A DNA stretch of 64,000 nucleotides from positions 1,941,099 through 2,005,098 of the forward strand of contig NZ_CP014862.1 of the NCBI RefSeq assembly GCF_002214585.1. The letters are read 5' to 3'. The position numbers and the translations under genes are program-made. Shown piece by piece: positions 1,799 to 15,007 of this stretch. This DNA is from Thermococcus profundus (GTDB taxonomy: Archaea > Methanobacteriota_B > Thermococci > Thermococcales > Thermococcaceae). Under the pieces are notes generated by a model. It was not told the DNA's origin, made no database searches, and saw only the letters and a program-made list of their open reading frames with translations. Within the stretch, counting starts at the first letter, position 1, and each line of letters opens with the position of its first letter.

Positions 1799-4700
1799 TC
1801 AGCCCTCTATTATTACTCCAATGTTGTCGCCTGGGCTGAAGCCGTTGTTGTCGTCGCTGGCAAACTGGAGGAACGCCGGGCTGTAGATGAGGCCGTCGGT
1901 CTCCTCCCAGTAGCCAACGACGTAGTTGCCGTGGAGCTCGCTGAAGTGCTGGCTGAAGTAGTAGGCGGCAGCCCAAGTGCTGTCGGCGTCGGTACCGTAG
2001 ATCATGTAGACCGTGGCGCCGGTGTCCGGGTCAACGACCTTCTGGATGACCCAGTAGCCCTTGCTGACGTTCCACCAGACCGCCGGAGCGGTCCAGTTGG
2101 CAACGGTCTCGTTGTCGACGACGATGCTGATGGTGCCGTTCTCGGTGACCATCTTGACCGGAGCGATCTCCTGGTACTGGGCGGTTATGCTGTTGGCCTC
2201 AGGACCGCCGACCGCTATGATGACATCGCCACTCTCGATGCTGAGGGTGCTCGGAGTGTAGGTCGGCTTGACACCAACGAGGTCGAAGATGAACGACATT
2301 GCCTGGTAGTCGACTGAGGTGAGGGCGTTCTCACCAAGGACGATCTTAGCGTTGCCGGTCTGGACGTCGTGGACGAAGGCGGCGAGTCCCTGCGGGGCCT
2401 CGGTGTATCCGACGACTATGTTGGCCGGTGAGGTCTGGAACGGTGAGACTCCGACCTCCGCGAATCCAGCCGGGGTGTTGCCCATGAAGGCAACGACCCT
2501 GTAGACGCTGAGCGGCGGGAGGGCCGGTATACCGTCGATCTCGTAGTGGCCGTGGGCGTCGGTTGTAACGCTGAGCTCGTTGCCAGCGTAGTCAACGGCC
2601 GGGACCCACTCGGTTCCGTTGAAGGTGTAGACGACTACCTTGACTCCAGCGACCGGGTTGTTGTTCTCGTCCATGACGATACCAGCGACGCTACCGATTC
2701 CGCCGAACCTAACGGTCTCGACGTTGCTCATGATGCCGTCGTAGGTGGCGTAGACGTTGACGTCGCCCATGAGGGTGAGGAGTTCGTCCGGGGTCATGCC
2801 GGTCTTGGCAGCTGAGTAGACCTTGAAGGTGGCAATACCGTTCTCGTCGGTCGTGGCGTTGGTTGGCTCGACGTAGGCTATGTCGCTGTCGACGTTGAAC
2901 TGGAGGAGCTTGTTGGCGAGCGGACCGTTGGCGGCGCTGATGTTGCCGGCCATGGCGTAAATCTCGTTGATGAGGTTCTCCTTCTCATCGTCGGTGAGGA
3001 ATGTCCAGGCCTGGATCTGCGGTACTATCTTCTCCTGGAACTGCTGGTCGAACTGGTCCTTGGCGTTCTCGACATAGAGGATGGCCTTGAAGTCGAAGTA
3101 GGATCCCTCCTTGGCTGGCTGGATGTCCATGTCTGTGACGCGCTCGATCTCAAGGGTCGGGGTGAGCTGGATGATCTCGCTGAAGCCCTCGAGCGGAGTG
3201 ACCTGAGCTATCTCCTTGGTGACCTTAGTGTAGATGGCATTGCCCCAGACTGATGAGGCCTGCGGCTCGATCGGGATGGCACCCGGAGCCATGGGCGGCT
3301 TGTAGGTGTATGTGAAGGTCGTTATGTTTCCGTCGACGTTGACGGTTATGCTCCAGGTGGTCTGATCGATCTGCTCGACCTCCGGGGTGACGTTCTTGTA
3401 GATCTTGGTGACGTTCCAGGTCTTAGCGAAGGTTGAGATGTCCTCGATGACCGGCACGTCCTTGGCGATCTCAAGCGGAACGGCTATGACGTAGAGCTTG
3501 AACTCCTCGACCGGAGCGAGCGGGAAGACTGCTTCGGTGGTTCCGACGACCTGCTTGTGGTTGACGAAGTCGTAGGCCGGGACGTACGGGCCTTCCCTGT
3601 TGTTGAAGGCGACGTAGATGACGGTGGTCTCGTTCGGTGACTCAAGGCTGCCCTCCTTCTTGATGCTGGTGTAGACCCAAGCGAGCTTGCTCATGTCAGG
3701 CTCGGTGACCGGAAGCTCAAGCTCTGCGGTCTTGCCGTACTTGTCCTCGCCGGAGATGAAGTACTTTCCGATGTCCGGAGCGTAGAGCTGAATGTTGGTT
3801 GAGCCAACACCATTGGTCATCTCAACGGTGAAGCTGGTCTTGATCGGGTAGAGGTCGGTGTTGTTGAAGACGGCCTCACCGGTGAAGGTGTCGTCGATCT
3901 GGGCAGTGATTGACTCGTTCCTGTCAAGGACGGCCTTGACGGTGATGGTTATGGTCCTGAGCGTTGCGGCCGGGAAGCTGTCCGGGTCAGCACTCATGAC
4001 GAGGTGCCAGCCCTCAACGGTGATGTCCTCAGTATCGGTGACGTTGTAGACGGCGTCATAGACGGTGATGGTGTAGTTTCCAGCCTCGAGAGTGACGTCG
4101 GCAGCGTAGACTCCGTCGCCGATGTAGGTCAGCTCGGTTCCGTCAAGGGTGACGGTGATGTTCTCGTAGTCGTTGGCACCGGAGTGGACGTAGACCTTGA
4201 CCTCGGTTGGGATGCCTGCGTAGATCGTGGTGGGCTCAACCTTCACGATCTTGACGAGCTCGTCGACCGGGATCTTGACGGTCTTGGTGACGTTGTAGGC
4301 GCCGATGACCTGGACGACGGTCAGGGTGGCGTTTCCGGTCTGGTTGATGACTGTCTTGCCGAAGTCGATGGTTCCCTCACCGTTGACAACGTCGAAGGTT
4401 CCGGTGAAGTTCTGTCCGTCCGGAAGGACGAGGGTGACGTTAGCGGTTCCGGTGAACGGGACGGTGTCACCGTTCTCGTCAACATAGGTGAACGGGAAGA
4501 CCAGGCTGTTCTCGAACTGCGGGTGGACGTAGAGCGGGTGAGTGTCAACCTCGATACCCCAGTCAAGGACGTCGACGGTGTAGGTCTCGTTGTACATGAG
4601 GTACTTGTTGCCGAGGTCGCTGACGTAGTAGACAGTGACGGTGTAGTTGGTGTCCTCAGTTAGGACAACCTCCGGGAAGGACTCGGTGTAGAGCTCGCCG

Positions 4701-7700
4701 TTGACGTAGATCTCAAGGTCGTCCGGGCTGATGGCGGTGACGTTCGGGGTGGCCACGACGCTGAGGTTGACAGGGATGTACTTGTAGACCTTCTCCGGCT
4801 CGAAGGTGACGTCGACCTTCCACGGCTTGACGTTGACGGTGGCAACGCCAGCGATGGTCGGGTCGGTGAGGTCCTTGACCTCAACTGTTATCGGGCCGGT
4901 GGCGTCGAGCTTAATGCCGGTTATCGTGGCGTGGCCGTTGTTGTTGTGCATCGGGACTATCTGGCTGTAGGCGATCTCGCCGCCGACGTAGACGGTCACG
5001 TTGACCATGCTGTCGGCGTCGATCGGGTAGATGACGTTGCCGCTAACGCCCATGTACTGGAGGTCAATCGTGTAGGTGCCGGTCTGGTACTGGTAGATCT
5101 CGTCAGGGGTGACCTTGACGTCGATGTACTTCTTGTTGTACTCGATGTTCGGGAAGACCGGGATGTACTGGACGGTCTTAACGAGGCCGTCGCTACCAAC
5201 GTCGCTGACGGTTATCTTGGCGACACCAGGAACGGTTATGTCCTCACCCGGTATCTCGAAGTAGACGTCGAAGTCCTTCCTGTAGTCGCCGGTGGCCAGC
5301 TTCCAGAACTTCTGGCCGTTCGGAAGCTCGATGGTGACGTTGTAGGTCCTGTACCTAAGCCTGCTGTCGTCCGGGTAGACGCCGATGTTAACGCCGATGA
5401 TGGCATCCTGGCCGACGGTGAGGCTGTCAGGCGTGGGCTCGGCTGAGACGTACCACTTCTTAACCGGGAACTTCTCAACGCCGGCGTAGGTGAACGGGCT
5501 GATGTTGAGAGTATCGTCCCAGTAGGTTATGCTCCAGTCAACGGTGACGTAGCCGGTCTCGTTGAACTGGAGGTCCTCGAGGATCTCGTTAAACATGTCA
5601 TTGAAGTCCGGACCGTCAGAGCAGACGTCCTCGTAGGTGAATGTCTCGTTGATCCACTTGTCGTAGTTCGGACCGGTGACGTGGACGCTGAGGTTGGCGT
5701 TGACCGGGAACGGGAAGGAGTCCTCGCCGAAGACGTGGAGGTCGTCCATCACTCCGATGTAGAAGACGTTGTAGTGAACATAGGCATCAACGTTCGGCCA
5801 GTCCTGGACGAAAATGGCGTGCTTGTCGTAGCCGCTTATTGTGGTGTTGTAGGTGCTGCCGTTGGCGAAGATGAGCATGGTCCACTCAGCCTTTACATAG
5901 CCGCTCTTGTTGAACTGCATGAAGTCGCTGACGTTGAGGTGGACGTAGGAGATCGAACCGCTGGTAAGACCGCCGTTGGTGGTGTTCACATAGTACTCGA
6001 ACGGGCCGTAAACTGTTCCATCCGGGCCGGTGAAGGTGACGTTGACGTAGGCCTCGTCGATCGGGAAGTCAACCTCAATGTCGTAGGTGAGGTTGGCCGG
6101 GATGTGGTCAACGAACTGACCTGAGTTGATGTGAGTGCAGTGGGCGAGGTTGTTTCCGAGGTTGTAGACGGTGTGAGCACCGAAGTCGCTCTCAATCGGG
6201 GCGACGTAGATGTAGAAGATGTCGCTCCTTCCGTAGACGGTGTCGGTGATGGTAACCTTGACTTTTCCTTCGGCATTGAACTTGATGAGCTCGGATATGG
6301 CGTAGAGGTCAAGAACGTCCGTAACGTTGAGGAGGTAGCTCTTGGTGAAGCCCGGACCGCTGACGGTGACGTTGAGCTGGGTCTGCGGGACGAACGGGAG
6401 GTCCCCTGAAAGGTAGGTAACGTTCTTGTAACCAATAACACAGCCGCAGTCATCGTAAATGGGCACTGTGGTCACTACGGCCTTCTCAAAGTTCACCCAG
6501 AACGTGAAGTTAGCCGGTATGTCGACGTAGAAGTGGTTGGTCGCCGGAGGCTTACCGAAGGTGTAGATGTAATAATAGTCGTGCCAGGCGTTGATGCCCC
6601 AGTCGTAGACGTTGATCTTCTTGTCGCCCCACTTGGCATAGTTGTTGTCCTTAACGACGACCCTTATCTTCTTGGTGGCGTCGTGAGCAACGAAGCTGAC
6701 GTTGGTGAGGTTGACGAAGATCTGACCCTGGCCGTTAACGACCGGAACCGAGTTGTTAACCCATATGAGGTCGTCACCGTAGTAGACCTCAACGGTTGCG
6801 GTGCTGTTTATAAGAACGAGGTGACCTGGGAGGGTCGAGTTGGTGTAGTTGAACTTGACGAGCATGGTTGCTGGGATGTCCTTGTAGAATCCGTAGCCAT
6901 AGTCACTTGAGGTGAGGGTGTTCGAGGTGTTGTCGTAGATGTATATGTCAGCGTCAACGTTGATCTGCCAGTCGTAGACGTTTATGGTAACGGTCCTGCT
7001 GACGCCGTAGTCTGGCAGGCTGAATGTGACCACGAGCGGGTCGGCGGAGACGTTGTAGATCGTGGTGGTGTTGGTACCGTCGGTAAGGTTGAATGTGCCG
7101 CTCATCGGGGTCGCTTCGGATGCTCCCTCGAGCTGGAAGGTTCCAGTTGCATCGAGACCGAGTTTACCGAGGGAGCTGTTTGAGGTTATAGTGAAGGTCA
7201 CGTTGAACGGGGCAAACTTAACGACCGCGGTGTTTCCGAGGGAGTTGTCCCAGCTTCCGCTTATAGCGGAGGTAACGTTGAGCCACCAGTTGTGAACCTC
7301 AACAACCTTTCCAGTCTCGTTGAGCGGTATGGTGTAGGTAAGGCCGTGCTTGGTGTCCTCGAGGACGAGGGTCAGGTAGCTTATGTTTGTGCTCTTAACG
7401 TTCGTGAAGTTAATGAAGTAGTCGTTCGGAGAAACGGCGAGTGTGGTGTTAACTACACCAGTGGCTATCTTGTCTGAACCAGCGTAGAGGTATGCCTTGA
7501 GCTCGGTCTCGTTCGGGAGGAGTGAGCCGTAGCCAGCCACGAGGGTGTCGTTGAAGTCAACCTGCAGGGTGAGGTTGAACGGTATGTTCTTGAATGCGGC
7601 GTTGTTCTGCCAGGCGGATCCGTCCCAGTAGGGGACGCTGCTGACGATGTTGATGTCGTTGTAGTCCTCAACCGGGCTCTCCTTAACGGGGATGTGCTTG

Positions 7701-8128
7701 GTGGTCTCGTAAGCGACTGAGATCTCTCCACCAATTATTGCGATAACCTGAGCCGAAACTATGACCTCGGAGGCGTTCTTCGGGATCTCAGGGAGGGTGA
7801 GGTTAACAACCTCCCAGAGGTCGTCACCGAGGTTGATAAGGCCGCTCTGGGTCTTAAGGACGAGCTGACCTGACTCGTTGTAGTAAACAAGAACCTGGAA
7901 GTTGTAGTTGTAGTCACCGCTGACATTCACTGAGAGGTTCGCTGGATACCCCACGAAGGGGTTTGAAACCTGGTTGCTGCCAAATGCTCCCAGGTAAAAG
8001 TCAGTGCTCTCAATCTGAATTTGAGGCGCTGCGTTCACTGGCTTAAAGAACGTCCCTGGAAGCACTGAAGCCACCATTAAAAATACCAACAACAAACTAA
8101 AGGTCTGCGCTTTCCTGCGCTTATTCAT
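1799..8128 (-). CDS. Giant secreted Ig-like/S-layer-like surface protein (2109 aa)
   Basis: A signal peptide covers about residues 1-34, with cleavage likely after VNAA. The body is a long series of beta-rich units rich in N-glycosylation sequons. A V-x-x-W boundary motif recurs near residues 281, 387, 510, 777, 892, 1103, 1190 and 1374, mostly 85-125 residues apart, suggesting tandem Ig-like domains. Around 1812-1895 there is a carboxypeptidase-regulatory-like domain (GSVAGIVMDENNNPVAGVKV). Around 1920-2055 the pattern KIVLGENA...VIIAVGGPEANSIT...YGTDADSTWAAAYY resembles the Vgg-P-x-x-N and Y-G-x-D signatures of archaeal S-layer proteins. There is no C-terminal membrane anchor. The start has a GGTGA site 7-8 bases upstream. 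Role inferred: envelope or S-layer-associated protein and likely substrate of the neighbouring AglB. Confidence 0.85.
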   Translation of the reverse strand: MNKRRKAQTFSLLLVFLMVASVLPGTFFKPVNAAPQIQIESTDFYLGAFGSNQVSNPFVGYPANLSVNVSGDYNYNFQVLVYYNESGQLVLKTQSGLINLGDDLWEVVNLTLPEIPKNASEVIVSAQVIAIIGGEISVAYETTKHIPVKESPVEDYNDINIVSSVPYWDGSAWQNNAAFKNIPFNLTLQVDFNDTLVAGYGSLLPNETELKAYLYAGSDKIATGVVNTTLAVSPNDYFINFTNVKSTNISYLTLVLEDTKHGLTYTIPLNETGKVVEVHNWWLNVTSAISGSWDNSLGNTAVVKFAPFNVTFTITSNSSLGKLGLDATGTFQLEGASEATPMSGTFNLTDGTNTTTIYNVSADPLVVTFSLPDYGVSRTVTINVYDWQINVDADIYIYDNTSNTLTSSDYGYGFYKDIPATMLVKFNYTNSTLPGHLVLINSTATVEVYYGDDLIWVNNSVPVVNGQGQIFVNLTNVSFVAHDATKKIRVVVKDNNYAKWGDKKINVYDWGINAWHDYYYIYTFGKPPATNHFYVDIPANFTFWVNFEKAVVTTVPIYDDCGCVIGYKNVTYLSGDLPFVPQTQLNVTVSGPGFTKSYLLNVTDVLDLYAISELIKFNAEGKVKVTITDTVYGRSDIFYIYVAPIESDFGAHTVYNLGNNLAHCTHINSGQFVDHIPANLTYDIEVDFPIDEAYVNVTFTGPDGTVYGPFEYYVNTTNGGLTSGSISYVHLNVSDFMQFNKSGYVKAEWTMLIFANGSTYNTTISGYDKHAIFVQDWPNVDAYVHYNVFYIGVMDDLHVFGEDSFPFPVNANLSVHVTGPNYDKWINETFTYEDVCSDGPDFNDMFNEILEDLQFNETGYVTVDWSITYWDDTLNISPFTYAGVEKFPVKKWYVSAEPTPDSLTVGQDAIIGVNIGVYPDDSRLRYRTYNVTIELPNGQKFWKLATGDYRKDFDVYFEIPGEDITVPGVAKITVSDVGSDGLVKTVQYIPVFPNIEYNKKYIDVKVTPDEIYQYQTGTYTIDLQYMGVSGNVIYPIDADSMVNVTVYVGGEIAYSQIVPMHNNNGHATITGIKLDATGPITVEVKDLTDPTIAGVATVNVKPWKVDVTFEPEKVYKYIPVNLSVVATPNVTAISPDDLEIYVNGELYTESFPEVVLTEDTNYTVTVYYVSDLGNKYLMYNETYTVDVLDWGIEVDTHPLYVHPQFENSLVFPFTYVDENGDTVPFTGTANVTLVLPDGQNFTGTFDVVNGEGTIDFGKTVINQTGNATLTVVQVIGAYNVTKTVKIPVDELVKIVKVEPTTIYAGIPTEVKVYVHSGANDYENITVTLDGTELTYIGDGVYAADVTLEAGNYTITVYDAVYNVTDTEDITVEGWHLVMSADPDSFPAATLRTITITVKAVLDRNESITAQIDDTFTGEAVFNNTDLYPIKTSFTVEMTNGVGSTNIQLYAPDIGKYFISGEDKYGKTAELELPVTEPDMSKLAWVYTSIKKEGSLESPNETTVIYVAFNNREGPYVPAYDFVNHKQVVGTTEAVFPLAPVEEFKLYVIAVPLEIAKDVPVIEDISTFAKTWNVTKIYKNVTPEVEQIDQTTWSITVNVDGNITTFTYTYKPPMAPGAIPIEPQASSVWGNAIYTKVTKEIAQVTPLEGFSEIIQLTPTLEIERVTDMDIQPAKEGSYFDFKAILYVENAKDQFDQQFQEKIVPQIQAWTFLTDDEKENLINEIYAMAGNISAANGPLANKLLQFNVDSDIAYVEPTNATTDENGIATFKVYSAAKTGMTPDELLTLMGDVNVYATYDGIMSNVETVRFGGIGSVAGIVMDENNNPVAGVKVVVYTFNGTEWVPAVDYAGNELSVTTDAHGHYEIDGIPALPPLSVYRVVAFMGNTPAGFAEVGVSPFQTSPANIVVGYTEAPQGLAAFVHDVQTGNAKIVLGENALTSVDYQAMSFIFDLVGVKPTYTPSTLSIESGDVIIAVGGPEANSITAQYQEIAPVKMVTENGTISIVVDNETVANWTAPAVWWNVSKGYWVIQKVVDPDTGATVYMIYGTDADSTWAAAYYFSQHFSELHGNYVVGYWEETDGLIYSPAFLQFASDDNNGFSPGDNIGVIIEG

Positions 8129-8293: not shown

Positions 8294-9430
8294 TCAAAAT
8301 TTTTCCAAAAGATTAGGGTCTTGAAGAAGCCTGGCCCACTTAGACCCACAGGACAGCCTTTTTAGTATGCCGTCTTTAATACTCCTCCTAAAAACCTTTT
8401 TTAAGGCTTTCGGATCAGAAAGTAGCTCGTCTAACATCGAGGAGAGTTCCGCTTTTTGTCGTAGGGTTATGAGGCCCTTTCCATCCTCCAACCCTAGAGT
8501 GGTGAAGTTGGGGGCAATGGCGGATGAAACCACCGGAACGGCATCAAAAATCAGCCCCTCAACCACGACCAACCCGAAGGACTCGAAGGAAGACGGAAGG
8601 ACAAGGATCGTGGCTTTTCCATAGATCGCGGCAAGCTCCTTTGGATCCGCCACCTGACCAAAGAAGCGAACCCTCCCCGAGATCCCAAGCCTTTCCGAGA
8701 GAGAGCGGTAGTGATCAAGCAGGTCGCCTCCGCCGACGACCCAGAGCTCCCAATCAGGATGTCTCGGGGAGACCTCGGAAAAGGCCCTCAAAAGAAGGTC
8801 GAAGTTCTTGAAGCTGTGGTATCTGGAAAGCTGGCCGACAAAAAGAATGACCTTCTCTTTTCCCATAGGATTATCCAATTTAACGAGTTTAGATTTAGGT
8901 CTGGGGAGGACCACGGTAGAGCGGAATCCCTTCTGCTGAAGGGAATCTCTAACTGCAGGCGAGACGGACACTATCCGTTTTGCCCGGGAGAGGACGAATC
9001 TCTCAAGGGTCCTCGAGTACAGAGAAGCCAGGACATCGGTTGCAGAACCCTTCTTTAGTCCAACCGTGTGATAAACAATGAGGAGGGGAACGCCAAAGAG
9101 GAGGGAAGCCAGAGCGCCGGCATCCGCAGCAGAAGGAACCGGCGTGTGGGCTATTATCAGGTCCGGATTCCACGACTTCACAGTTGAGATTACCCTGAGA
9201 ACGAACCTCAAGCTCAGGGGTGTGTTGGAGATGACAAAACCAGCTTTGACCCTTTCCACGGGAAGAACAGAGTCCCCAACGCGGACTCTCTCGCGGGAGG
9301 ATCTCCTTCTGCTCATGCAGATGATCCGGACCTCGTGCTCCTTCGAAAGATCCTCCGCCATTGCCGAAGCATAGCTTTCGAGGCCGCCGCCCTCGGGTGG
9401 AAAGTAGGGAGCCAGCAGGAGGATCCTCAA
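8294..9430 (-). CDS. GT4-family (group 1) glycosyltransferase
   Basis: The 378-residue protein begins RILLLAPYFPPEGGG, the usual N-terminal Rossmann start of GT-B enzymes with the glycine-rich loop. The second domain contains VGQLSRYHSFKNFDLLL and the E-x7-E nucleotide-sugar motif ESFGLVVVE. The start chosen is TTG at 9430 because GGAGG lies 7 bases upstream; longer readings run back into the upstream GT2 gene and add non-conserved sequence. It lies 2 bases after that gene's stop, so the two are co-transcribed. Likely transfers a sugar from a nucleotide donor onto a lipid-linked or surface glycan; donor and acceptor cannot be read from sequence. Confidence 0.9.
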   Translation of the reverse strand: MRILLLAPYFPPEGGGLESYASAMAEDLSKEHEVRIICMSRRRSSRERVRVGDSVLPVERVKAGFVISNTPLSLRFVLRVISTVKSWNPDLIIAHTPVPSAADAGALASLLFGVPLLIVYHTVGLKKGSATDVLASLYSRTLERFVLSRAKRIVSVSPAVRDSLQQKGFRSTVVLPRPKSKLVKLDNPMGKEKVILFVGQLSRYHSFKNFDLLLRAFSEVSPRHPDWELWVVGGGDLLDHYRSLSERLGISGRVRFFGQVADPKELAAIYGKATILVLPSSFESFGLVVVEGLIFDAVPVVSSAIAPNFTTLGLEDGKGLITLRQKAELSSMLDELLSDPKALKKVFRRSIKDGILKRLSCGSKWARLLQDPNLLEKF

Positions 9431-9432
9431 CC

Positions 9433-10542
9433 TCAGCCCTCCTTGAGCATGTAGACGCTTATGAAGAACGAGAAGAAGATAACCTGAAGTCCTAGGGTTA
9501 TGAGTGTAAGGATGAGCACTGCCTCCCTTATGTGGAAGAGCGCGCCGTAGCCGGTCGCCCTCCACTGGAGGAAGAGCTTAAGCCCCAAGGCGAGGCCGAT
9601 GAGGAACATCAGACCCCCAAGGAGAAGGCCCTCCTCAAGGATGGAGTAGCGCATGAAGAAGCGAGTTATCCTATCGGGCCTTTCAAAGCCCTCTTTGACG
9701 GCGTAGACCTTCGCAGAGACCCCAAAGCCGAGAATCTGGGTTCCAGAGATTACCAGAAGGGAGCCCAAGATGAGGGTGTGGAGCCTTATCGGCTCAAAGA
9801 AGTAGGTGTAGCCCATGAGAAACAGACCCAGCAGAAGGAGGAAAAGGCCCGGAAGGAAGAAGAGGTACGTTGGGGAGTAGAGGAGCATGAGGCGGAGGTG
9901 CCTCCAGCCGTCCCTAAAAGAGCTCAGCTTTGATTCACCGATCCTGCGGTGGTACCTTATCGGCACCTCCTTTATCCTGAGCCCGTGCTTCGCCGCTTCG
10001 ATCACCATCTCGCTGGCGAATTCCATGCCCCTGCATTTGAGGGGCAACTTTTCAAGGGCGTCCCTTCTTATCGCCCTCATGCCGCAGTGGGCATCGGAGA
10101 TGCCGGCTTTGAAGAAGAAGTTGAGGATCCACGTGAGAAGGGGGTTGCCGATCTTCCTGTGAAGCCACGGCATCGCCCCCTCGTCCATCTCACCCTTCAG
10201 ACGGTTGCCCATGACGAGATCGGCTTCATCCTTCAGCAGGGGTTCGAGGAGCGCAGGTATGTCCTCTGGATCGTAGCTCCCATCGGGATCCATCATGAGG
10301 ATGAACCTTCCCCTAGCGGCCCTAAAACCCTCAAGGTACGCATCGCCGTAGCCTCTGCCCCTCTGCCTTATAACAACCGCCCCGAGCTCCCTGGCGATCT
10401 GGGGAGTTTTATCGGTGCTCCTGTCAACGACTATAATCTCATACCTAAGGCCGGTTCTATCGAGCACCGCTTTTATCCGGGGCAGAACAGTTTGTATGGC
10501 CTCCTCCTCGTTCATCGTCGGCAGAACCACTGACACGTCCAT
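9433..10542 (-). CDS. GT2-family glycosyltransferase, polyprenyl-phosphate sugar synthase type
   Basis: The N-terminal GT-A domain (about residues 1-220) starts DVSVVLPTMNEEEAI and has the metal-binding MDPDGSYDPED motif and the conserved GRGYGDAYLEGF segment. It is followed by four hydrophobic segments (about 225-369), the layout of membrane-bound dolichol-phosphate mannose/glucose synthase relatives. ATG at 10542 is preferred because GGTG is 6 bases upstream; GTG at 10551 would add three residues. A TATA-like TTAAATC lies about 35 bases upstream. The enzyme likely loads dolichyl phosphate with a hexose at the cytoplasmic face, feeding the AglB or surface-glycan pathway; the particular sugar is unknown. 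Confidence 0.9.
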   Translation of the reverse strand: MDVSVVLPTMNEEEAIQTVLPRIKAVLDRTGLRYEIIVVDRSTDKTPQIARELGAVVIRQRGRGYGDAYLEGFRAARGRFILMMDPDGSYDPEDIPALLEPLLKDEADLVMGNRLKGEMDEGAMPWLHRKIGNPLLTWILNFFFKAGISDAHCGMRAIRRDALEKLPLKCRGMEFASEMVIEAAKHGLRIKEVPIRYHRRIGESKLSSFRDGWRHLRLMLLYSPTYLFFLPGLFLLLLGLFLMGYTYFFEPIRLHTLILGSLLVISGTQILGFGVSAKVYAVKEGFERPDRITRFFMRYSILEEGLLLGGLMFLIGLALGLKLFLQWRATGYGALFHIREAVLILTLITLGLQVIFFSFFISVYMLKEG

Positions 10543-10590
10543 GGGCCGCACCGGTGAAAATAGAAAAAGAGGCTTTTAGATTTAACGGAG

Positions 10591-11394
10591 CTACCCGAGC
10601 CCGGACTTCATCTGCTTCAGCATGTCTATGGCCTGGTCTATCATCGAGTCCAGTCCAAGATCGCTCGCTGTAAGGTTAACCGTGAACTCCATGTCTATGG
10701 GAACCTCAAGCTCCTCGTTTATGGGCACCTGGATGACGTCATCGAAGGGAACGTCAACCACTGTATCCACTGGAACGCTTAGGGTGTCCCTGAACGGGAC
10801 GTCAACGGTGGTGTCGATGGGAACCTCAACTGTGGTGTCGAGGGTGGTGGTGACGGGCACGGTGGTCTTGATGTGCGTCTTCACAGTAGTGTTTATGGGG
10901 ACGTCAACCCACTTATCTATAGGAACCGTGACGTTGAGGGTGAGGTTCTTTTCGGCGTTGTAGGCTGTGGTGTTGACGGTCTGTACTATGTGGACGCGGG
11001 TCACGGTGTTTATCGGCACGTCAACGACTTGATCAATGGGAACGTTGAAGCTGACCTCCTGGCTTATCGGAACGTCAACGGTGTCGGTAAGGTTCACCTT
11101 AAACGTCTTGTCCACGGAGACCTCGACCGTCTTGTTGATGTGCACTTGGAACACCTTGGAAACGTGAACGTCCACCGTCGTGTTGATGGGAACTTTGACA
11201 GTCTTGTGAACCGGAACCTTGACCTCAAAGGTCTTCCCCTTCATGTCCTCCAGGGAACTTATGGCGTCGTCAACGGCAGAGGATGCTTTTCCCTTGAGCT
11301 TCATTGCGAACATAACCGCCCCCAGATCCACGACGAGGAGCAGGATCACAAGAACAGTTAAGATGCTGAGCCACACCTTGGTTCCTTTTTCCAT
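10591..11394 (-). CDS. Membrane-anchored octapeptide-repeat protein, function unknown
   Basis: This 267-residue protein has one N-terminal membrane segment (about residues 8-30), a short helical linker, then roughly 20 consecutive repeats of about 8 residues (about 47-245) with the pattern [DKEQ]-V-[PH]-[IVF]-[NDK]-x-x-[VF], for example KVPINTTV, DVPISQEV, EVPIDTTV and DVPFDDVI. A short amphipathic C-terminal helix follows. Alternating hydrophobic and beta-branched residues suggest an extended beta-solenoid or fibre outside the cell. Several N-x-T sequons are present. ATG at 11394 is chosen because the membrane segment follows at once; further upstream sequence crosses the promoter. It is transcribed divergently from AglB. 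I recognise no family. Confidence 0.85.
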   Translation of the reverse strand: MEKGTKVWLSILTVLVILLLVVDLGAVMFAMKLKGKASSAVDDAISSLEDMKGKTFEVKVPVHKTVKVPINTTVDVHVSKVFQVHINKTVEVSVDKTFKVNLTDTVDVPISQEVSFNVPIDQVVDVPINTVTRVHIVQTVNTTAYNAEKNLTLNVTVPIDKWVDVPINTTVKTHIKTTVPVTTTLDTTVEVPIDTTVDVPFRDTLSVPVDTVVDVPFDDVIQVPINEELEVPIDMEFTVNLTASDLGLDSMIDQAIDMLKQMKSGLG

Positions 11395-11438
11395 GATCCA
11401 TCCCCCACGCTTAAACAATAAGGGATGAGGATGCCAAA

Positions 11439-11468
11439 GTATAAATCGTTTACCCTTAATATTTATAG
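11439..11468. promoter_or_regulatory. Divergent promoter pair between the octapeptide-repeat gene and aglB
   Basis: AGTATAAATCG (11439-11449) read on the minus strand is a TATA box for the repeat protein, and AATATTTATAG (11458-11468) is one for aglB. The two boxes are only 8 bases apart, so the two genes may be coordinately controlled. Confidence 0.6.
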
Positions 11469-11498
11469 GGATGAGGTTAACTCGAATGGGTGGCACAG

Positions 11499-13847
11499 AT
11501 GGGCAGAAAAAAGAAAAAGACCGATGCCGGGGATACCCCAAAAAGGATGATCAAATCACCGCAATTTCCCGGATGGAGCAAGAGGCTTATCCCGTTCCTG
11601 ATATTCCTCATGGCACTCACAATAAGGCTCATACCCTACAGACTCAAATACCTCGTCGGCTACGACCCATACTTTCACCTCGCGTACCTTGAGTACGCCT
11701 CCCAGCACGGGTGGGTCAACTACTTTCCCTACGCCCTCGGCCCGTGGGGCTTTCTGATAAACCACTTCCACCCAAAGGGAATGTGGCTGACACCCTACTC
11801 GATCTACAGGATTGGGAATCCCTTCGGCCTCTCAATCGAAGGAGCTTTCAAACTGACGCCCCCCATATTAGGAGCCCTAACTGTGCTGCTCGTCTATTAC
11901 ATGATGAAAAAACTGTACTCGTGGAAGGAGGCATCCCTCTCAGCTCTCATCCTGGCGCTCTCATTTGGTCACGTCTTCCGCTCCATGTCAAGTTACTACA
12001 GGGGAGATAACTACGCGCTCTTCTGGTACTCGGCAACCCTGGTTTTGATGGGCTACGGATTGAATGAGAAAGAAGATAGAAGAAAGGTCTTCATCTACCT
12101 GACGGCGGGACTGGTGGCAGGGTTCTCAAGTGCCTTCTGGAGCGCCTACTACGTGGTTCTCGCGCTACCCCTCTTGGTTTCAATAGCACTGGCCGCATAT
12201 TCCCTCTTCCGCGGGGGCTACTTTGGGGATTCCACGCTCACCGCGGCATCGACCGCCGTCGGTGCACTGATGGCTTCAGCGCTGGGACACGTCTTCGGCT
12301 TCGGAATGTTCTGGATCCAGAACTGGCAGGGGGAACAGCTGAGATCCATAACCGGCCTGAGCCCGGGCCCCTTAGAGGACGTCTACCTAACACTTCACCT
12401 GCTCGTTCTCGTGCCCCTAACTCTGGCCCTCACGGCTTCTCTCTGGGCGGTCAGGTCCAGGCTTCCGGAGGGAACGCGCAGAACTGGCACCATAGGGGTT
12501 GTTGCCCTGGTCACAGTCATCTTCGTGGCGATTCTCTGGAAATACGGTGGAACGATGGAGATACTCTCCGCAGGATTAAGCTCCTTCGGAAGCGCAGCCA
12601 CGGCGGAGATGTCCAGACCCGGCTGGTGGGACATCAAGATGGCCTACCATGCGTTTCTGGCGTTTCTCCCCTTCTACCTCCTCTCCTTCAGGCACTTCCG
12701 CGTCCGCGATGCGTTCATCCTGGGAGTTTCAGCTCCACTAATAGCACTGGCGTTCTACTGGACGCGATTCCTGTTCATAGGGTCCCTCGGAGTGTCGCTG
12801 GCGGCTGGAATCGGGGCGAGTGAGCTCGTTGAGTTAACAGGAAGATGGAACATGAAAAAGGCAGGGGTCGCTCTCATCATAGTCCTGGTAATCTTGGGCG
12901 GCTACCATGGGGTTAAGGCAGCGGCCGATGTCAAGCCAATAGTTGATGAAAACTGGGCCAGCGCGCTGATCTATCTTAAGGGGATCTCGAACGAGAACGA
13001 CATCGTCTTAACTTGGTGGGATCACGGCCACTGGGTCACCTACTTCGCTCACAGGGCGGCGGTGGCTCAGGGGACACCTAGCAAGCTGGTATCGAGATTC
13101 TACCTCGGGAATGCCTCCAGGGAGGAGCTGCTCGAACTGGGGGTTGACTACGTTACTGTTTCCTTTGACACGATCCTCAAATGGGGCTCCGTCAAATCGA
13201 CGGCGGGGTACACGGGAAGCGAATACGTTCTGATACCCCTGTTCCCCAGCGGGGTTTACGGGGATGCCGTGATCTTCGCCAATGGGCCGTATCAGGTGGG
13301 CGTGAGGAAGGCAGAAAACGGGACATGGAGCGTTCTTGTAAACGTGAAGGGCAACACTTTTATCCCCGAAGAGGTCTGGATAGAGAGCGGGGACAAACCT
13401 TTCCGGGCCAACGTAACCGGAAAGAAGGCCGGAAACGCGTACCTGTACGTTAATCTCAAGTACGGCTACGCGGTTCTAATGGACGGCAGGACGTTTTCAA
13501 CGCCCTTTGCTAGGCTCATGTTCACCTCAGAGTACTCCAAGGAGTACAGGCTTGTCTATTCAGACGGGGGAAGGGTGAAGATATTCCAGCTCCTCCACCC
13601 CAACGTTGTCCTCGACAGGTCCAACGGACTCGTTCTGCGCTTCACAAACGCGACCGGAGACAGACTGAGAATATACGGCTACACTGACTCGGGGAAGAGA
13701 GTATTCTACCGGGAGTACAACGTCTCAGGCCTCAGCGAGTTCCGGGTTCCAGAGACAGTACCCGGGGACGTCATAAGGTACACCTACCTAAAGGGGAGCA
13801 TCATACTCGACAGGGGTGTCTTCAGGAGGTCTGGCGGGTGGAGCTGA
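11499..13847 (+). CDS. aglB: Dolichyl-phosphooligosaccharide-protein glycotransferase (oligosaccharyltransferase)
   Basis: This is an STT3/AglB enzyme that transfers a dolichol-linked glycan to Asn of N-x-S/T sequons at the outer face of the membrane. Visible motifs are the first external-loop acidic motif YDPYFHLAY, the second YYRGDNYALFWY, the catalytic WWDHG (TWWDHGHWVTYF), and a candidate DxxK motif (FDTILKWG). About 13 membrane segments occupy the first 480 residues and a soluble C-terminal domain follows. At 782 residues it is nearer the short archaeal AglB forms than the roughly 970-residue long form. ATG 11499 has GGTGG 5 bases upstream; GTG at 11490 is possible and would be nearly leaderless. 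It overlaps the flippase gene by 10 bases. Confidence 0.95.
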   Translation: MGRKKKKTDAGDTPKRMIKSPQFPGWSKRLIPFLIFLMALTIRLIPYRLKYLVGYDPYFHLAYLEYASQHGWVNYFPYALGPWGFLINHFHPKGMWLTPYSIYRIGNPFGLSIEGAFKLTPPILGALTVLLVYYMMKKLYSWKEASLSALILALSFGHVFRSMSSYYRGDNYALFWYSATLVLMGYGLNEKEDRRKVFIYLTAGLVAGFSSAFWSAYYVVLALPLLVSIALAAYSLFRGGYFGDSTLTAASTAVGALMASALGHVFGFGMFWIQNWQGEQLRSITGLSPGPLEDVYLTLHLLVLVPLTLALTASLWAVRSRLPEGTRRTGTIGVVALVTVIFVAILWKYGGTMEILSAGLSSFGSAATAEMSRPGWWDIKMAYHAFLAFLPFYLLSFRHFRVRDAFILGVSAPLIALAFYWTRFLFIGSLGVSLAAGIGASELVELTGRWNMKKAGVALIIVLVILGGYHGVKAAADVKPIVDENWASALIYLKGISNENDIVLTWWDHGHWVTYFAHRAAVAQGTPSKLVSRFYLGNASREELLELGVDYVTVSFDTILKWGSVKSTAGYTGSEYVLIPLFPSGVYGDAVIFANGPYQVGVRKAENGTWSVLVNVKGNTFIPEEVWIESGDKPFRANVTGKKAGNAYLYVNLKYGYAVLMDGRTFSTPFARLMFTSEYSKEYRLVYSDGGRVKIFQLLHPNVVLDRSNGLVLRFTNATGDRLRIYGYTDSGKRVFYREYNVSGLSEFRVPETVPGDVIRYTYLKGSIILDRGVFRRSGGWS

Positions 13848-15007
13848 GGGACCTCGCCCGGCCCACTCTCCACCTAACCACCGCGACCCTGATAAGCGCG
13901 ATAACGGGCTTGATATTCTGGTGGGCTGCCTCAAGGTTCTACTCGGCTGGGGATATTGGAACAGCCTCAGCGGTGATATCCTTCCTGAACCTGGCCTTCG
14001 CAGTCTCGACCCTCGGCCTCAACGTTGGCCTCATCCGCTTTTACGGCGAGTTCAACGGAAGAGGAGCCGGGACGACATTAATCATAATGACCGCGCTTTC
14101 GCTCGTCCTAACAGGGGTCTACGGGATTCTGAACCCCGGCAAAGCCCTGGGGAGAGAACCGAGCTTTTTTGGGCTCCTGCTGGCAACTGCAGCAGCAGGG
14201 GCACTTTACAACGTTCTAGGATACCTCTCAGTGGCATCGGGAAAAACGAGAACTTACGTTGAGATGAGCTTAGCTTACGGACTGAGGGTTATTCCGGTTC
14301 CGCTGATGAGATCCCTAGGGGCTCCCGGCCTTTTGGGATCCTTCGGGTTCGGGCTTGTACTTGGACTCTCCCACGGATGGAGAAAGCTCAGGAGCCACAT
14401 CGTCCCGTGTCTTGATAGGGAATTCCTCAGGGCAAGCTTCGGGGTCTCCCTGAGCAACTACATCGGGAACATCGTCAACCTCCTCCCCGTTTACCTCATG
14501 CCAACAATAATCCTGGTCGAGCTTGGAAGGGAGTGGACCGGATACTACTACGTCGGATTCACCCTTGGGAACATCATCCTGGTGCCCATCACCGCCCTTA
14601 GCACGATTCTCCTCCGGGAGGAGAGAACAGGTCAAAAGTTCAGAGAGGCCCTTCTGCTGATTCTGATTTACTGGGGCGCCTCGGTGGTGGGAATATGGCT
14701 CTTTGGGAACTACGCCCTCCTGCTCTTTGGAGAGGGATACACCAGGGCCATGGACATGCTTAAAGCGGTGGCACTGGGAATAGGGCCCGCAGGGGTCACC
14801 TACGTTGGGCTGGCAAAGCTCACCGTGGAAAAGAAACCGGTTTATATCTCCATTCTCAACGTCCTCCGCGGTGGGCTCTTCCTCCTTATCGGATACCTTC
14901 TCCTGGGGAGGTACGGCATAGCAGGGGTTGGAATGGGATGGAGCCTCGCCCACACCGCAACTGGCCTTGGGATTGTTGTGCTCTGGAAAAAGCCGAAAAG
15001 TTTTTAA
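13838..15007 (+). CDS. Wzx/MATE-type polysaccharide (lipid-linked oligosaccharide) flippase
   Basis: This 389-residue integral membrane protein has about 12 hydrophobic segments and starts with an N-terminus typical of the MOP superfamily: ITGLIFWWAASRFYSAGDIG followed by GTASAVISFLNLAF. It is shorter than many Wzx proteins (about 420-500). The GTG start at 13838 lies inside the end of aglB, so the two are translationally coupled. That pairing suggests it flips the lipid-linked oligosaccharide used by AglB, or another surface polymer unit; the specific substrate is inference. Confidence 0.85.
   Translation: MELRDLARPTLHLTTATLISAITGLIFWWAASRFYSAGDIGTASAVISFLNLAFAVSTLGLNVGLIRFYGEFNGRGAGTTLIIMTALSLVLTGVYGILNPGKALGREPSFFGLLLATAAAGALYNVLGYLSVASGKTRTYVEMSLAYGLRVIPVPLMRSLGAPGLLGSFGFGLVLGLSHGWRKLRSHIVPCLDREFLRASFGVSLSNYIGNIVNLLPVYLMPTIILVELGREWTGYYYVGFTLGNIILVPITALSTILLREERTGQKFREALLLILIYWGASVVGIWLFGNYALLLFGEGYTRAMDMLKAVALGIGPAGVTYVGLAKLTVEKKPVYISILNVLRGGLFLLIGYLLLGRYGIAGVGMGWSLAHTATGLGIVVLWKKPKSF

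What the first reader, a model, noticed from the sequence alone, without database searches (positions are those of the whole stretch)
10591..11394. Octapeptide-repeat membrane protein beside the oligosaccharyltransferase
About 20 near-continuous 8-residue units with alternating hydrophobic positions (for example KVPINTTV, DVPISQEV, EVPIDTTV) form most of a membrane-tethered external protein. The unit length and regularity are unlike any common repeat I recognise. It shares a control region with aglB, carries N-glycosylation sequons and may be a structural partner or substrate of surface glycosylation.
Basis: partly seen in the sequence, partly recalled or inferred. Interest (0 to 1): 0.72.

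Follow-up and report, generated by a model that had tools for sequence, protein, structure and literature searches.

The report
Giant membrane-anchored beta-hairpin surface stalk
A gene in a heat-loving archaeon encodes a repeat protein that matched no named protein family and is predicted to fold into one enormous membrane-anchored hairpin; the relatives measured in archaea and bacteria keep the two halves nearly equal in length however long they are, so it is likely a surface stalk.

Summary
The gene and its octapeptides are real: 267 aa, minus strand 10591-11394, conserved and under purifying selection. What defines the family is not the octapeptide (other rows mostly use 6-residue spacing). 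It is a membrane helix, two alternating hydrophobic/polar arms joined by a turn, and a C-terminal amphipathic helix. AlphaFold2 strand positions imply one hairpin, with arms of 44 residues in a database relative and 92 here (about 30 nm if fully extended). Three sequence tests agree: arm lengths stay matched from 26 to 94 residues (141 rows, r=0.996; 84 further proteins, r=0.992); covariation peaks at or within 2 of the predicted pairing diagonal; all 14 arm prolines lie on the polar face. I read it as a membrane-anchored, self-associating surface stalk, probably glycosylated in Thermococcus; the fold is well supported, the stalk role inferred. Linkage to aglB holds in 8 of 61 genus genomes; elsewhere the gene sits in other glycan, secreted-protein or unrelated loci. 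Exporter fusions keep a hydrophobic-conduit role open.

The parts
10591..11394 (-). CDS of the hairpin protein, 267 aa, ATG start
   Evidence: seven syntenic orthologues 68-76% identical, dN/dS 0.05-0.15
11302..11376 (-). N-terminal membrane-spanning helix, about residues 7-31
   Evidence: AF2 helix 3-53; hydrophobic stretch read directly; flanking charges N-in/C-out
11236..11301 (-). Juxtamembrane amphipathic helix, residues 32-53
   Evidence: AF2; in the short-arm family rows the hydrophobicity power of the matching helix peaks at period 3.5-3.6, which shows an amphipathic helix but does not by itself prove a coiled coil
10957..11232 (-). Beta arm 1, residues 55-146; hydrophobic residues on even positions (32 of 37), all 5 prolines on odd positions
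   Evidence: AF2 strands 55-90 and 101-146; parity counts
10945..10956 (-). Hairpin turn, residues 147-150 (AEKN)
   Evidence: AF2 strand ends satisfy i+j=297; arm lengths matched either side
10669..10944 (-). Beta arm 2, residues 151-242; hydrophobic residues on odd positions (35 of 38), all 9 prolines on even positions
   Evidence: AF2 strands 151-196 and 207-242; parity counts
10597..10650 (-). C-terminal amphipathic helix, residues 249-266
   Evidence: AF2; hydrophobicity power of the matching helix in short-arm rows peaks at period 3.5
11395..11498 (.). 104-bp region shared with the divergent aglB
   Evidence: Direct reading; divergent arrangement kept in 8 of 8 syntenic genomes, although the sequence itself is poorly conserved
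11499..13847 (+). Oligosaccharyltransferase AglB/STT3 (neighbour)
   Evidence: Pfam STT3 36.3 bits, over its cut-off of 24.5
9433..10551 (-). GT2 glycosyltransferase, AglJ-like (neighbour)
   Evidence: Glycos_transf_2 113 bits; TIGR04182 197 bits, below its cut-off of 325
8294..9565 (-). GT4 glycosyltransferase (neighbour; true start probably later than the ORF start)
   Evidence: Glycos_transf_1 86.7 bits
1799..8128 (-). 2109-aa secreted-looking surface protein (neighbour); the PF05124 S-layer family matches elsewhere in the genome, and only weakly here (14.5 bits, cut-off 23.9)

Best explanation
The gene encodes a protein predicted to be membrane-anchored and to form one giant beta-hairpin (two arms of about 92 residues; arms stay length-matched across the relatives measured) that likely self-associates into a stalk standing on the outside of the cell. 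How it would work: the N-terminal helix anchors it, N-terminus inside. The juxtamembrane and C-terminal amphipathic helices would form a bundle at the membrane surface. The two arms run out and back as one amphipathic ribbon up to about 30 nm long. Each arm has a V/I face and a P/D/N/T/K face; the hydrophobic face would be buried by packing two or three hairpins together, and the prolines and glycans on the polar face would stop further sheet growth. The stalk would act as a spacer or tether between the membrane and the surface layers, and its reach would be set by arm length. Shown by sequence: alternation, matched arms, covariation near the hairpin register, conservation, sequon enrichment. 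Predicted: the fold and the topology. Inferred: the pairing of the arms from strand positions, glycosylation, the oligomer and the stalk role.
For: AF2: database relative P0037 H6-51, E54-97, E100-143, H148-166, pLDDT 85. Window protein E55-90, E101-146, E151-196, E207-242; every strand end pairs with another to the sum 297, which implies one hairpin. Arm lengths: 141 rows, arm 1 26-94 and arm 2 27-97 residues, r=0.996, slope 1.02, difference 3.7 +/- 1.3 (range 0-8); 26 distinct pairs r=0.995. A later set of 84 of 88 proteins: r=0.992, slope 1.02, difference 1.9 +/- 1.5. Two genomes of another genus: 68/72 and 68/72. Covariation in 89 sequences: mean APC-MI highest at i+j=197 (z 2.8, reduced alphabet) and at 195, 199, 197 (finer alphabet). 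Parity: 32 of 37 hydrophobics on one face of arm 1, 35 of 38 on the mirrored face of arm 2; 14 of 14 arm prolines on the other face. N-in/C-out charges. Sequon enrichment in Thermococcus; five sequons in 8 of 8 orthologues. Surface or glycan loci: aglB and glycosyltransferases in 8 genomes, with a relative of the 2109-aa protein found in all 8; sugar-nucleotide genes near the copies of G047, G052, G053 and G048; an 837-aa secreted-looking protein beside that of G043.
Against: No oligomer could be modelled, so burial of the hydrophobic face is inferred. The structure tool returns strands, not pairings; the hairpin is read from strand positions. The window model is only moderately confident (pLDDT 72.8, pTM 0.45; residues 91-100 and 197-206 lowest), and P0037's pTM is 0.42. 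AF2 used much the same sequences as my covariation test, where the unrelated sum 175 also ranks third in one alphabet. Four database rows (P0006, P0016, P0023, P0032) show the repeat without an obvious turn and were left out of the arm count. Neighbours on bacterial contigs are varied (LuxC/LuxE, polyketide/sulfotransferase, unknown) and do not point to a surface layer. In-frame fusions to EmrB-like exporter segments suggest a transport link in one lineage. Patchy presence, 18 of 61 genus genomes (17 with the archaeal profile), argues against an essential structural role. The PF05124 S-layer gene is not in the window, and relatives of the 2109-aa protein also occur in G009, G017 and G047, whose aglB slots lack the hairpin gene.
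Confidence: 0.5

Rival explanations
1. Hydrophobic conduit or wick: several hairpins line up as an upright barrel or trough whose hydrophobic face carries lipid-like or hydrophobic cargo away from the membrane, working with exporters and flippases.
For: In-frame fusion behind EmrB-like MFS exporter segments in database relatives: P0117 over the MFS_1 cut-off, P0124, P0079 and P0118 below it; P0125, P0012 and P0087 look similar by eye but have no Pfam hit. Some neighbours make or move hydrophobic molecules: LuxC/LuxE, polyketide-like genes, a flippase-like gene. Many of the weak Foldseek rows are subunits of hairpin-built barrels: lysenin, aerolysin, FliF collar.
Against: Fold matches are weak (TM-score 0.25 or lower in the rows listed) and may reflect only 'long hairpin'. 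Neighbourhoods are not consistent. No cargo or partner is known, and the fusion proteins seen hold only part of an exporter.
Confidence: 0.22
2. T4 gp5-like trimeric octapeptide beta-helix: three chains wind round each other, each octapeptide being one short strand, with no hairpin.
For: Octad with hydrophobics at three alternate positions and N/D before the fourth, as recalled for gp5; weak subthreshold Pfam hit to Gp5_trimer_C (12.5 bits, cut-off 30.9).
Against: The octad is not a family trait: proline spacing in the non-archaeal rows is 6 in 703 of 1356 and 8 in 351 of 1356 cases. Matched arm lengths and a central turn are unexplained by it. AF2 predicts long strands.
Confidence: 0.04
3. 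A dedicated partner or subunit of the oligosaccharyltransferase AglB.
For: Divergent neighbour of aglB in 8 genomes; sequon enrichment.
Against: AglB-like matches occur in 61 of 61 genus genomes, this gene in 18 of 61. It occurs away from aglB in several genomes and in bacteria.
Confidence: 0.05
4. Surface adhesin or amyloid-like fibre that polymerises edge to edge between cells rather than standing as a fixed-length stalk.
For: Beta-branched, strictly alternating, Thr-rich strands (direct reading).
Against: Prolines at polar-face positions and possible glycans disfavour open-ended sheets; matched arms and capping helices suggest a closed unit (inference).
Confidence: 0.1

Closest known systems
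Sulfolobus SlaB (S-layer stalk)
   Same: Membrane-anchored, glycosylated surface stalk; [quoted passage not shown]
   Different: SlaB is described with a coiled coil plus beta-sandwich domains; here the reach would be made by two length-matched beta arms. No direct sequence comparison with SlaB was made.
Staphylothermus tetrabrachion
   Same: Long surface stalk in a hyperthermophilic archaeon; 70 nm (PMC5744192, passages read).
   Different: Tetrameric right-handed coiled coil with undecad repeats, not a beta-hairpin.
FliF / SpoIIIAG beta-collar
   Same: Membrane proteins whose long antiparallel strands stand upright (68-stranded collar of FliF; PMC8092281, passages read); FliF appears among the weak fold hits.
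   Different: Ring-building globular domains and rings of 30-34 subunits; no such domain is seen in the models here.
Pore-forming proteins with stem hairpins (aerolysin, lysenin)
   Same: Long amphipathic hairpins; weak fold hits.
T4 gp5 C-terminal beta-helix
   Same: Octapeptide repeat (passages in PMC3004832; residue-level pattern recalled).
   Different: Intertwined trimer; octad not conserved in the present family.
HlyD/EmrA-type adaptors
   Same: Single membrane helix plus long hairpin used with exporters (recalled); EmrB-like segments are fused to some relatives.
   Different: Alpha-helical hairpin with lipoyl and barrel domains (recalled); beta arms here.

Membership tests
T4 gp5 octapeptide triple beta-helix | Octapeptide spacing throughout the family | tested here: not met
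   Proline spacing 8 in 62 of 102 (aglB-linked) but 6 in 703 of 1356 and 8 in 351 of 1356 in the non-archaeal rows
T4 gp5 octapeptide triple beta-helix | Sequence match to the Pfam model | tested here: not met
   Gp5_trimer_C 12.5 bits against a cut-off of 30.9
T4 gp5 octapeptide triple beta-helix | Intertwined trimer | not testable with these tools
   No multimer prediction available
SlaB-type S-layer stalk | Single membrane helix and outward stalk | tested here: inconclusive
   Helix and N-in/C-out charges found; outward location not measured
SlaB-type S-layer stalk | Beta-sandwich domains carried on a coiled coil | tested here: not met
   AF2 shows helix, beta arms, helix only
SlaB-type S-layer stalk | Binds a lattice protein | not testable with these tools
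   A relative of the 2109-aa protein is found in all 8 genomes with the aglB-linked form; in G054 the hit is on another contig, and no binding data exist
FliF/SpoIIIAG ring proteins | Ring-building-motif domain | tested here: not met
   No such Pfam/NCBIfam hit; predicted models have no globular domain
FliF/SpoIIIAG ring proteins | Same fold of the collar | tested here: inconclusive
Aerolysin/lysenin-type pore formers | Receptor-binding domain plus stem hairpin | tested here: inconclusive
   Only weak alignments, mostly to stem hairpins; no further domain in the models
Oligosaccharyltransferase accessory subunit | Always linked to aglB | tested here: not met
   8 of 61 genus genomes, plus one broken copy downstream of an aglB

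The most novel reading that the evidence does not exclude
A previously unnamed family, spread across Archaea and Bacteria, builds molecular rulers from a single amphipathic beta-hairpin whose two arms are kept length-matched by evolution from 26 to 94 residues. Side by side, these hairpins form hydrophobic-cored columns that carry lipid-like cargo or surface layers tens of nanometres away from the membrane, a fibre architecture with no described precedent.
Probability: 0.25. Interest if true: 0.85.

Novelty: new variant of a known kind. Interest (0 to 1): 0.62.

Why it matters
If right, this is a beta-sheet counterpart of coiled-coil stalks and alpha-hairpin adaptors. A single hairpin about 30 nm long would be far longer than any natural beta-hairpin I know of (recalled, not searched exhaustively). 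Its matched arms give a clean evolutionary signature of cross-strand pairing and a built-in length scale. It also gives a testable candidate for what holds Thermococcus surface layers off the membrane; a double layer with a 10-12 nm gap has been reported in T. stetteri (PMC5744192, passages read). And it draws attention to a widespread family without a name or model, several of whose few named members are Chloroflexota.

Tried and rejected

Automatic turn detection by the parity flip: over all 143 rows it failed (r -0.54, 92 rows off by more than 8), mainly because in many rows the alternation does not flip at the turn, so there is nothing to detect. In the 59 of 141 rows judged flip-detectable, 57 gave matched arms (difference -4 to 10, r 0.992); with the other 2, the T. 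gorgonarius protein counted twice (G043, P0002), r falls to 0.52. The main arm count therefore rests on an aligned turn column, and for 22 rows on a turn motif that I set after seeing that MAFFT had misplaced the column in most of them. The 141 rows include near-identical relatives and that protein twice. Rows dropped before that count: 14 of 132 database proteins (exporter fusions or related N-terminal extensions, partial, atypical or near-duplicate: P0006, P0012, P0016, P0022, P0023, P0032, P0079, P0087, P0103, P0108, P0117, P0118, P0124, P0125); of the named contigs, L072 (same protein as P0056) and L076 were not added. Of the later set, 4 of 88 were dropped (no N-terminal half). P0006, P0016, P0023 and P0032 show the repeat without an obvious turn and may not obey the rule. 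Intergenic sequence is poorly conserved, so no shared promoter element is claimed.

Literature (open-licence PMC only): no paper found for octapeptide repeat + Thermococcus, long beta-hairpin + Chloroflexi, or octad repeat + beta-hairpin + transmembrane. Searches gave one and two papers that I judged unrelated from the listing. Searches were used to pick papers; passages were read in PMC5744192, PMC6911244, PMC3004832, PMC8092281 and PMC12175726, no paper in full.

Full report
WHAT IS THERE. The minus-strand gene at 10591-11394 encodes 267 aa: a short basic N-terminus, one membrane-spanning helix, a juxtamembrane helix, about 190 residues of alternating hydrophobic/polar sequence with 14 prolines in the arms, and a C-terminal amphipathic helix. 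The octapeptide is real: lag-8 identity is 0.300 against 0.114 shuffled, and within arms 0.315 against 0.168 +/- 0.025 when alternation is kept. It is strict only in residues 59-114 and 190-237.

WHO HAS IT. One protein search gave 34 relatives, an alignment search 260 (best 120 listed) and a second alignment search 367 (best 120 listed). Most rows carry no name. Given names include Chloroflexi, Anaerolineales, Ardenticatenales, Kouleothrix, Acidimicrobiia, a Cellvibrionaceae MAG, Methanomicrobia and four Thermococcus species; named contigs add Patescibacteria/Parcubacteria. Among genomes: 18 of 61 in the genus with a mixed profile, 17 of 61 with an archaeal one. The difference is G055 (E 4.8e-4, no matching ORF), which I take as chance. 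In the order 20 of 94, in the phylum 24 of 115. No named family covers it.

THE FOLD. AlphaFold2 on 81 database sequences headed by P0037 gave helix 6-51, strand 54-97, strand 100-143, helix 148-166, pLDDT 85, pTM 0.42. On 121 sequences headed by the window protein it gave strands 55-90, 101-146, 151-196 and 207-242, pLDDT 73, pTM 0.45. In the second model every strand boundary pairs with another to the same sum (55+242, 90+207, 101+196, 146+151 = 297). It is therefore read as a single hairpin too, with a weakly predicted stretch at 91-100 against 197-206. The tool lists strands and not their pairing, so pairing is my inference from these positions.

THE KEY TEST. If the arms pair, their lengths must stay equal while the protein grows or shrinks. 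Measured from an anchor at the start of arm 1 to the turn, and from the turn to an anchor at the C-terminal helix, 141 rows give arms of 26-94 and 27-97 residues, r=0.996, slope 1.02, difference 3.7 +/- 1.3; the 26 distinct arm pairs give r=0.995. Proteins found afterwards (84 of 88; 4 lacked the N-terminal half) give r=0.992, slope 1.02, difference 1.9 +/- 1.5 (turn taken one residue later, at the glycine, hence the smaller offset). Two proteins of another genus gave 68/72 each. The turn was placed by an aligned column, or by motif in 22 rows. A motif-free method worked in 57 of the 59 rows where it could work and is described, with its failure elsewhere, under Tried and rejected. Sequences are related, so the correlation is not 141 independent events, but the length classes span two domains of life.

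TWO MORE SEQUENCE TESTS. In 89 short-arm sequences (effective number 57) the mean corrected mutual information between arms is highest on the anti-diagonal i+j=197 in a reduced alphabet (z 2.8), and on 195, 199 and 197 in a finer one. Sum 175 also ranks third in the first alphabet, so this is supportive rather than conclusive. Hydrophobic residues sit on even positions in arm 1 (32 of 37) and odd positions in arm 2 (35 of 38) of the window protein, as a turn with an even number of residues requires, and all 14 arm prolines lie on the opposite face. In the non-archaeal rows the proline spacing is mostly 6, not 8, so the octad is a Thermococcales version of a more general alternating arm.

TOPOLOGY AND GLYCOSYLATION. 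Flanking charges favour N-in/C-out. In some database relatives the hairpin follows, in frame, a segment like the end of an EmrB-type exporter: four of the seven scanned have a Pfam hit, one of them (P0117) over the cut-off. If those exporters end in the cytoplasm, as is usual (recalled), the hairpin would face outward. In the eight aglB-linked orthologues, Asn at polar positions is followed by S/T at +2 in 80 of 114 cases against 54 of 255 for other polar residues; in the other rows (mostly bacterial where named) the figures are 184 of 446 and 578 of 2005; four representative archaeal proteins give 15 of 30 against 22 of 111. Sequons at 101, 141, 150, 154 and 240 are present in 8 of 8 orthologues. 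This supports, but does not show, N-glycosylation.

NEIGHBOURHOOD. In 8 of 61 genus genomes the gene is divergent from aglB and followed by the same GT2 gene and a GT4 gene. A relative of the 2109-aa protein is found in all 8, on the same contig in 7 (in G054 on another), and also in G009, G017 and G047. At six other aglB loci (G001, G009, G012, G017, G047, G057) one GT4 family, 63-92% identical to that of G012, fills the slot in 6 of 6 and no hairpin sequence is found there. Elsewhere the gene sits by an 837-aa secreted-looking protein (G043), near nucleotide-sugar genes (G047, G052, G053, G048) or between DUF1616 and HAD genes (G015, G059). The PF05124 S-layer family matches about 61 kb before the window. 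In-silico S-layer models of two Thermococcus species are mentioned in PMC12175726 (passage read); I could not compare them. Neighbours on bacterial contigs are mixed: LuxC/LuxE, polyketide-like and sulfotransferase genes, and an unnamed 775-777-aa protein upstream in two Chloroflexi.

HOW IT PROBABLY WORKS. I commit to a membrane-anchored surface stalk: paired arms as an amphipathic ribbon, hydrophobic faces packed together in a small oligomer, helices bundled at the membrane, glycans and prolines on the outside. [quoted passage not shown] Fold confidence about 0.85; stalk role about 0.45; overall 0.5. The main rival is a hydrophobic conduit, raised by exporter fusions and by some neighbours that handle hydrophobic molecules.

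KNOWN OR NEW. Fibrous membrane-anchored stalks are a known kind. A stalk made from one hairpin with evolutionarily length-matched arms is, as far as my searches and recall go, not described. I file it as a new variant of a known kind, and put the bolder reading in the section on the most novel reading.

Noticed in passing
window 1799-8128 (-), residues 1961-2109: The last about 147 residues of the 2109-aa protein are shared, at 44-48% identity, with several otherwise different reading frames of 206-2112 aa in other Thermococcus genomes, like a common C-terminal attachment module.
   Followed up: partly
L055, L056, L057, L058, L059, L060: At six other Thermococcus aglB loci the slot between aglB and the GT2 gene holds a GT4 glycosyltransferase instead of the hairpin gene.
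   Followed up: yes
   Followed up: partly
G000:C1:1925072-1927408: A second AglB-like protein (40% identical) lies about 14 kb before the window in the same genome.
   Followed up: no
L072:3667-5994, L073:3619-5952: Two Chloroflexi contigs have an unannotated 775-777-aa protein (no Pfam hit) directly upstream of the hairpin gene; its N-terminal part looks methyltransferase-like by eye only.
   Followed up: partly
P0117, P0124, P0079, P0118 (database proteins): Hairpin domains in frame behind EmrB-like MFS exporter segments; possibly fusions, possibly coupled genes with an internal start.
   Followed up: partly
L022, L023, L024, L112: Archaea of the same class (two of the contigs are named Methanomicrobia) carry a miniature form of 119-136 aa; arms of 26-27 residues were measured in three of these four, the shortest hairpin seen.
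   Followed up: yes
window 13838-15007 (+): Membrane protein after aglB with no Pfam hit; a 34% identical relative next to the hairpin in G053 matches Polysacc_synt below its cut-off, so possibly a Wzx-like flippase.
   Followed up: partly
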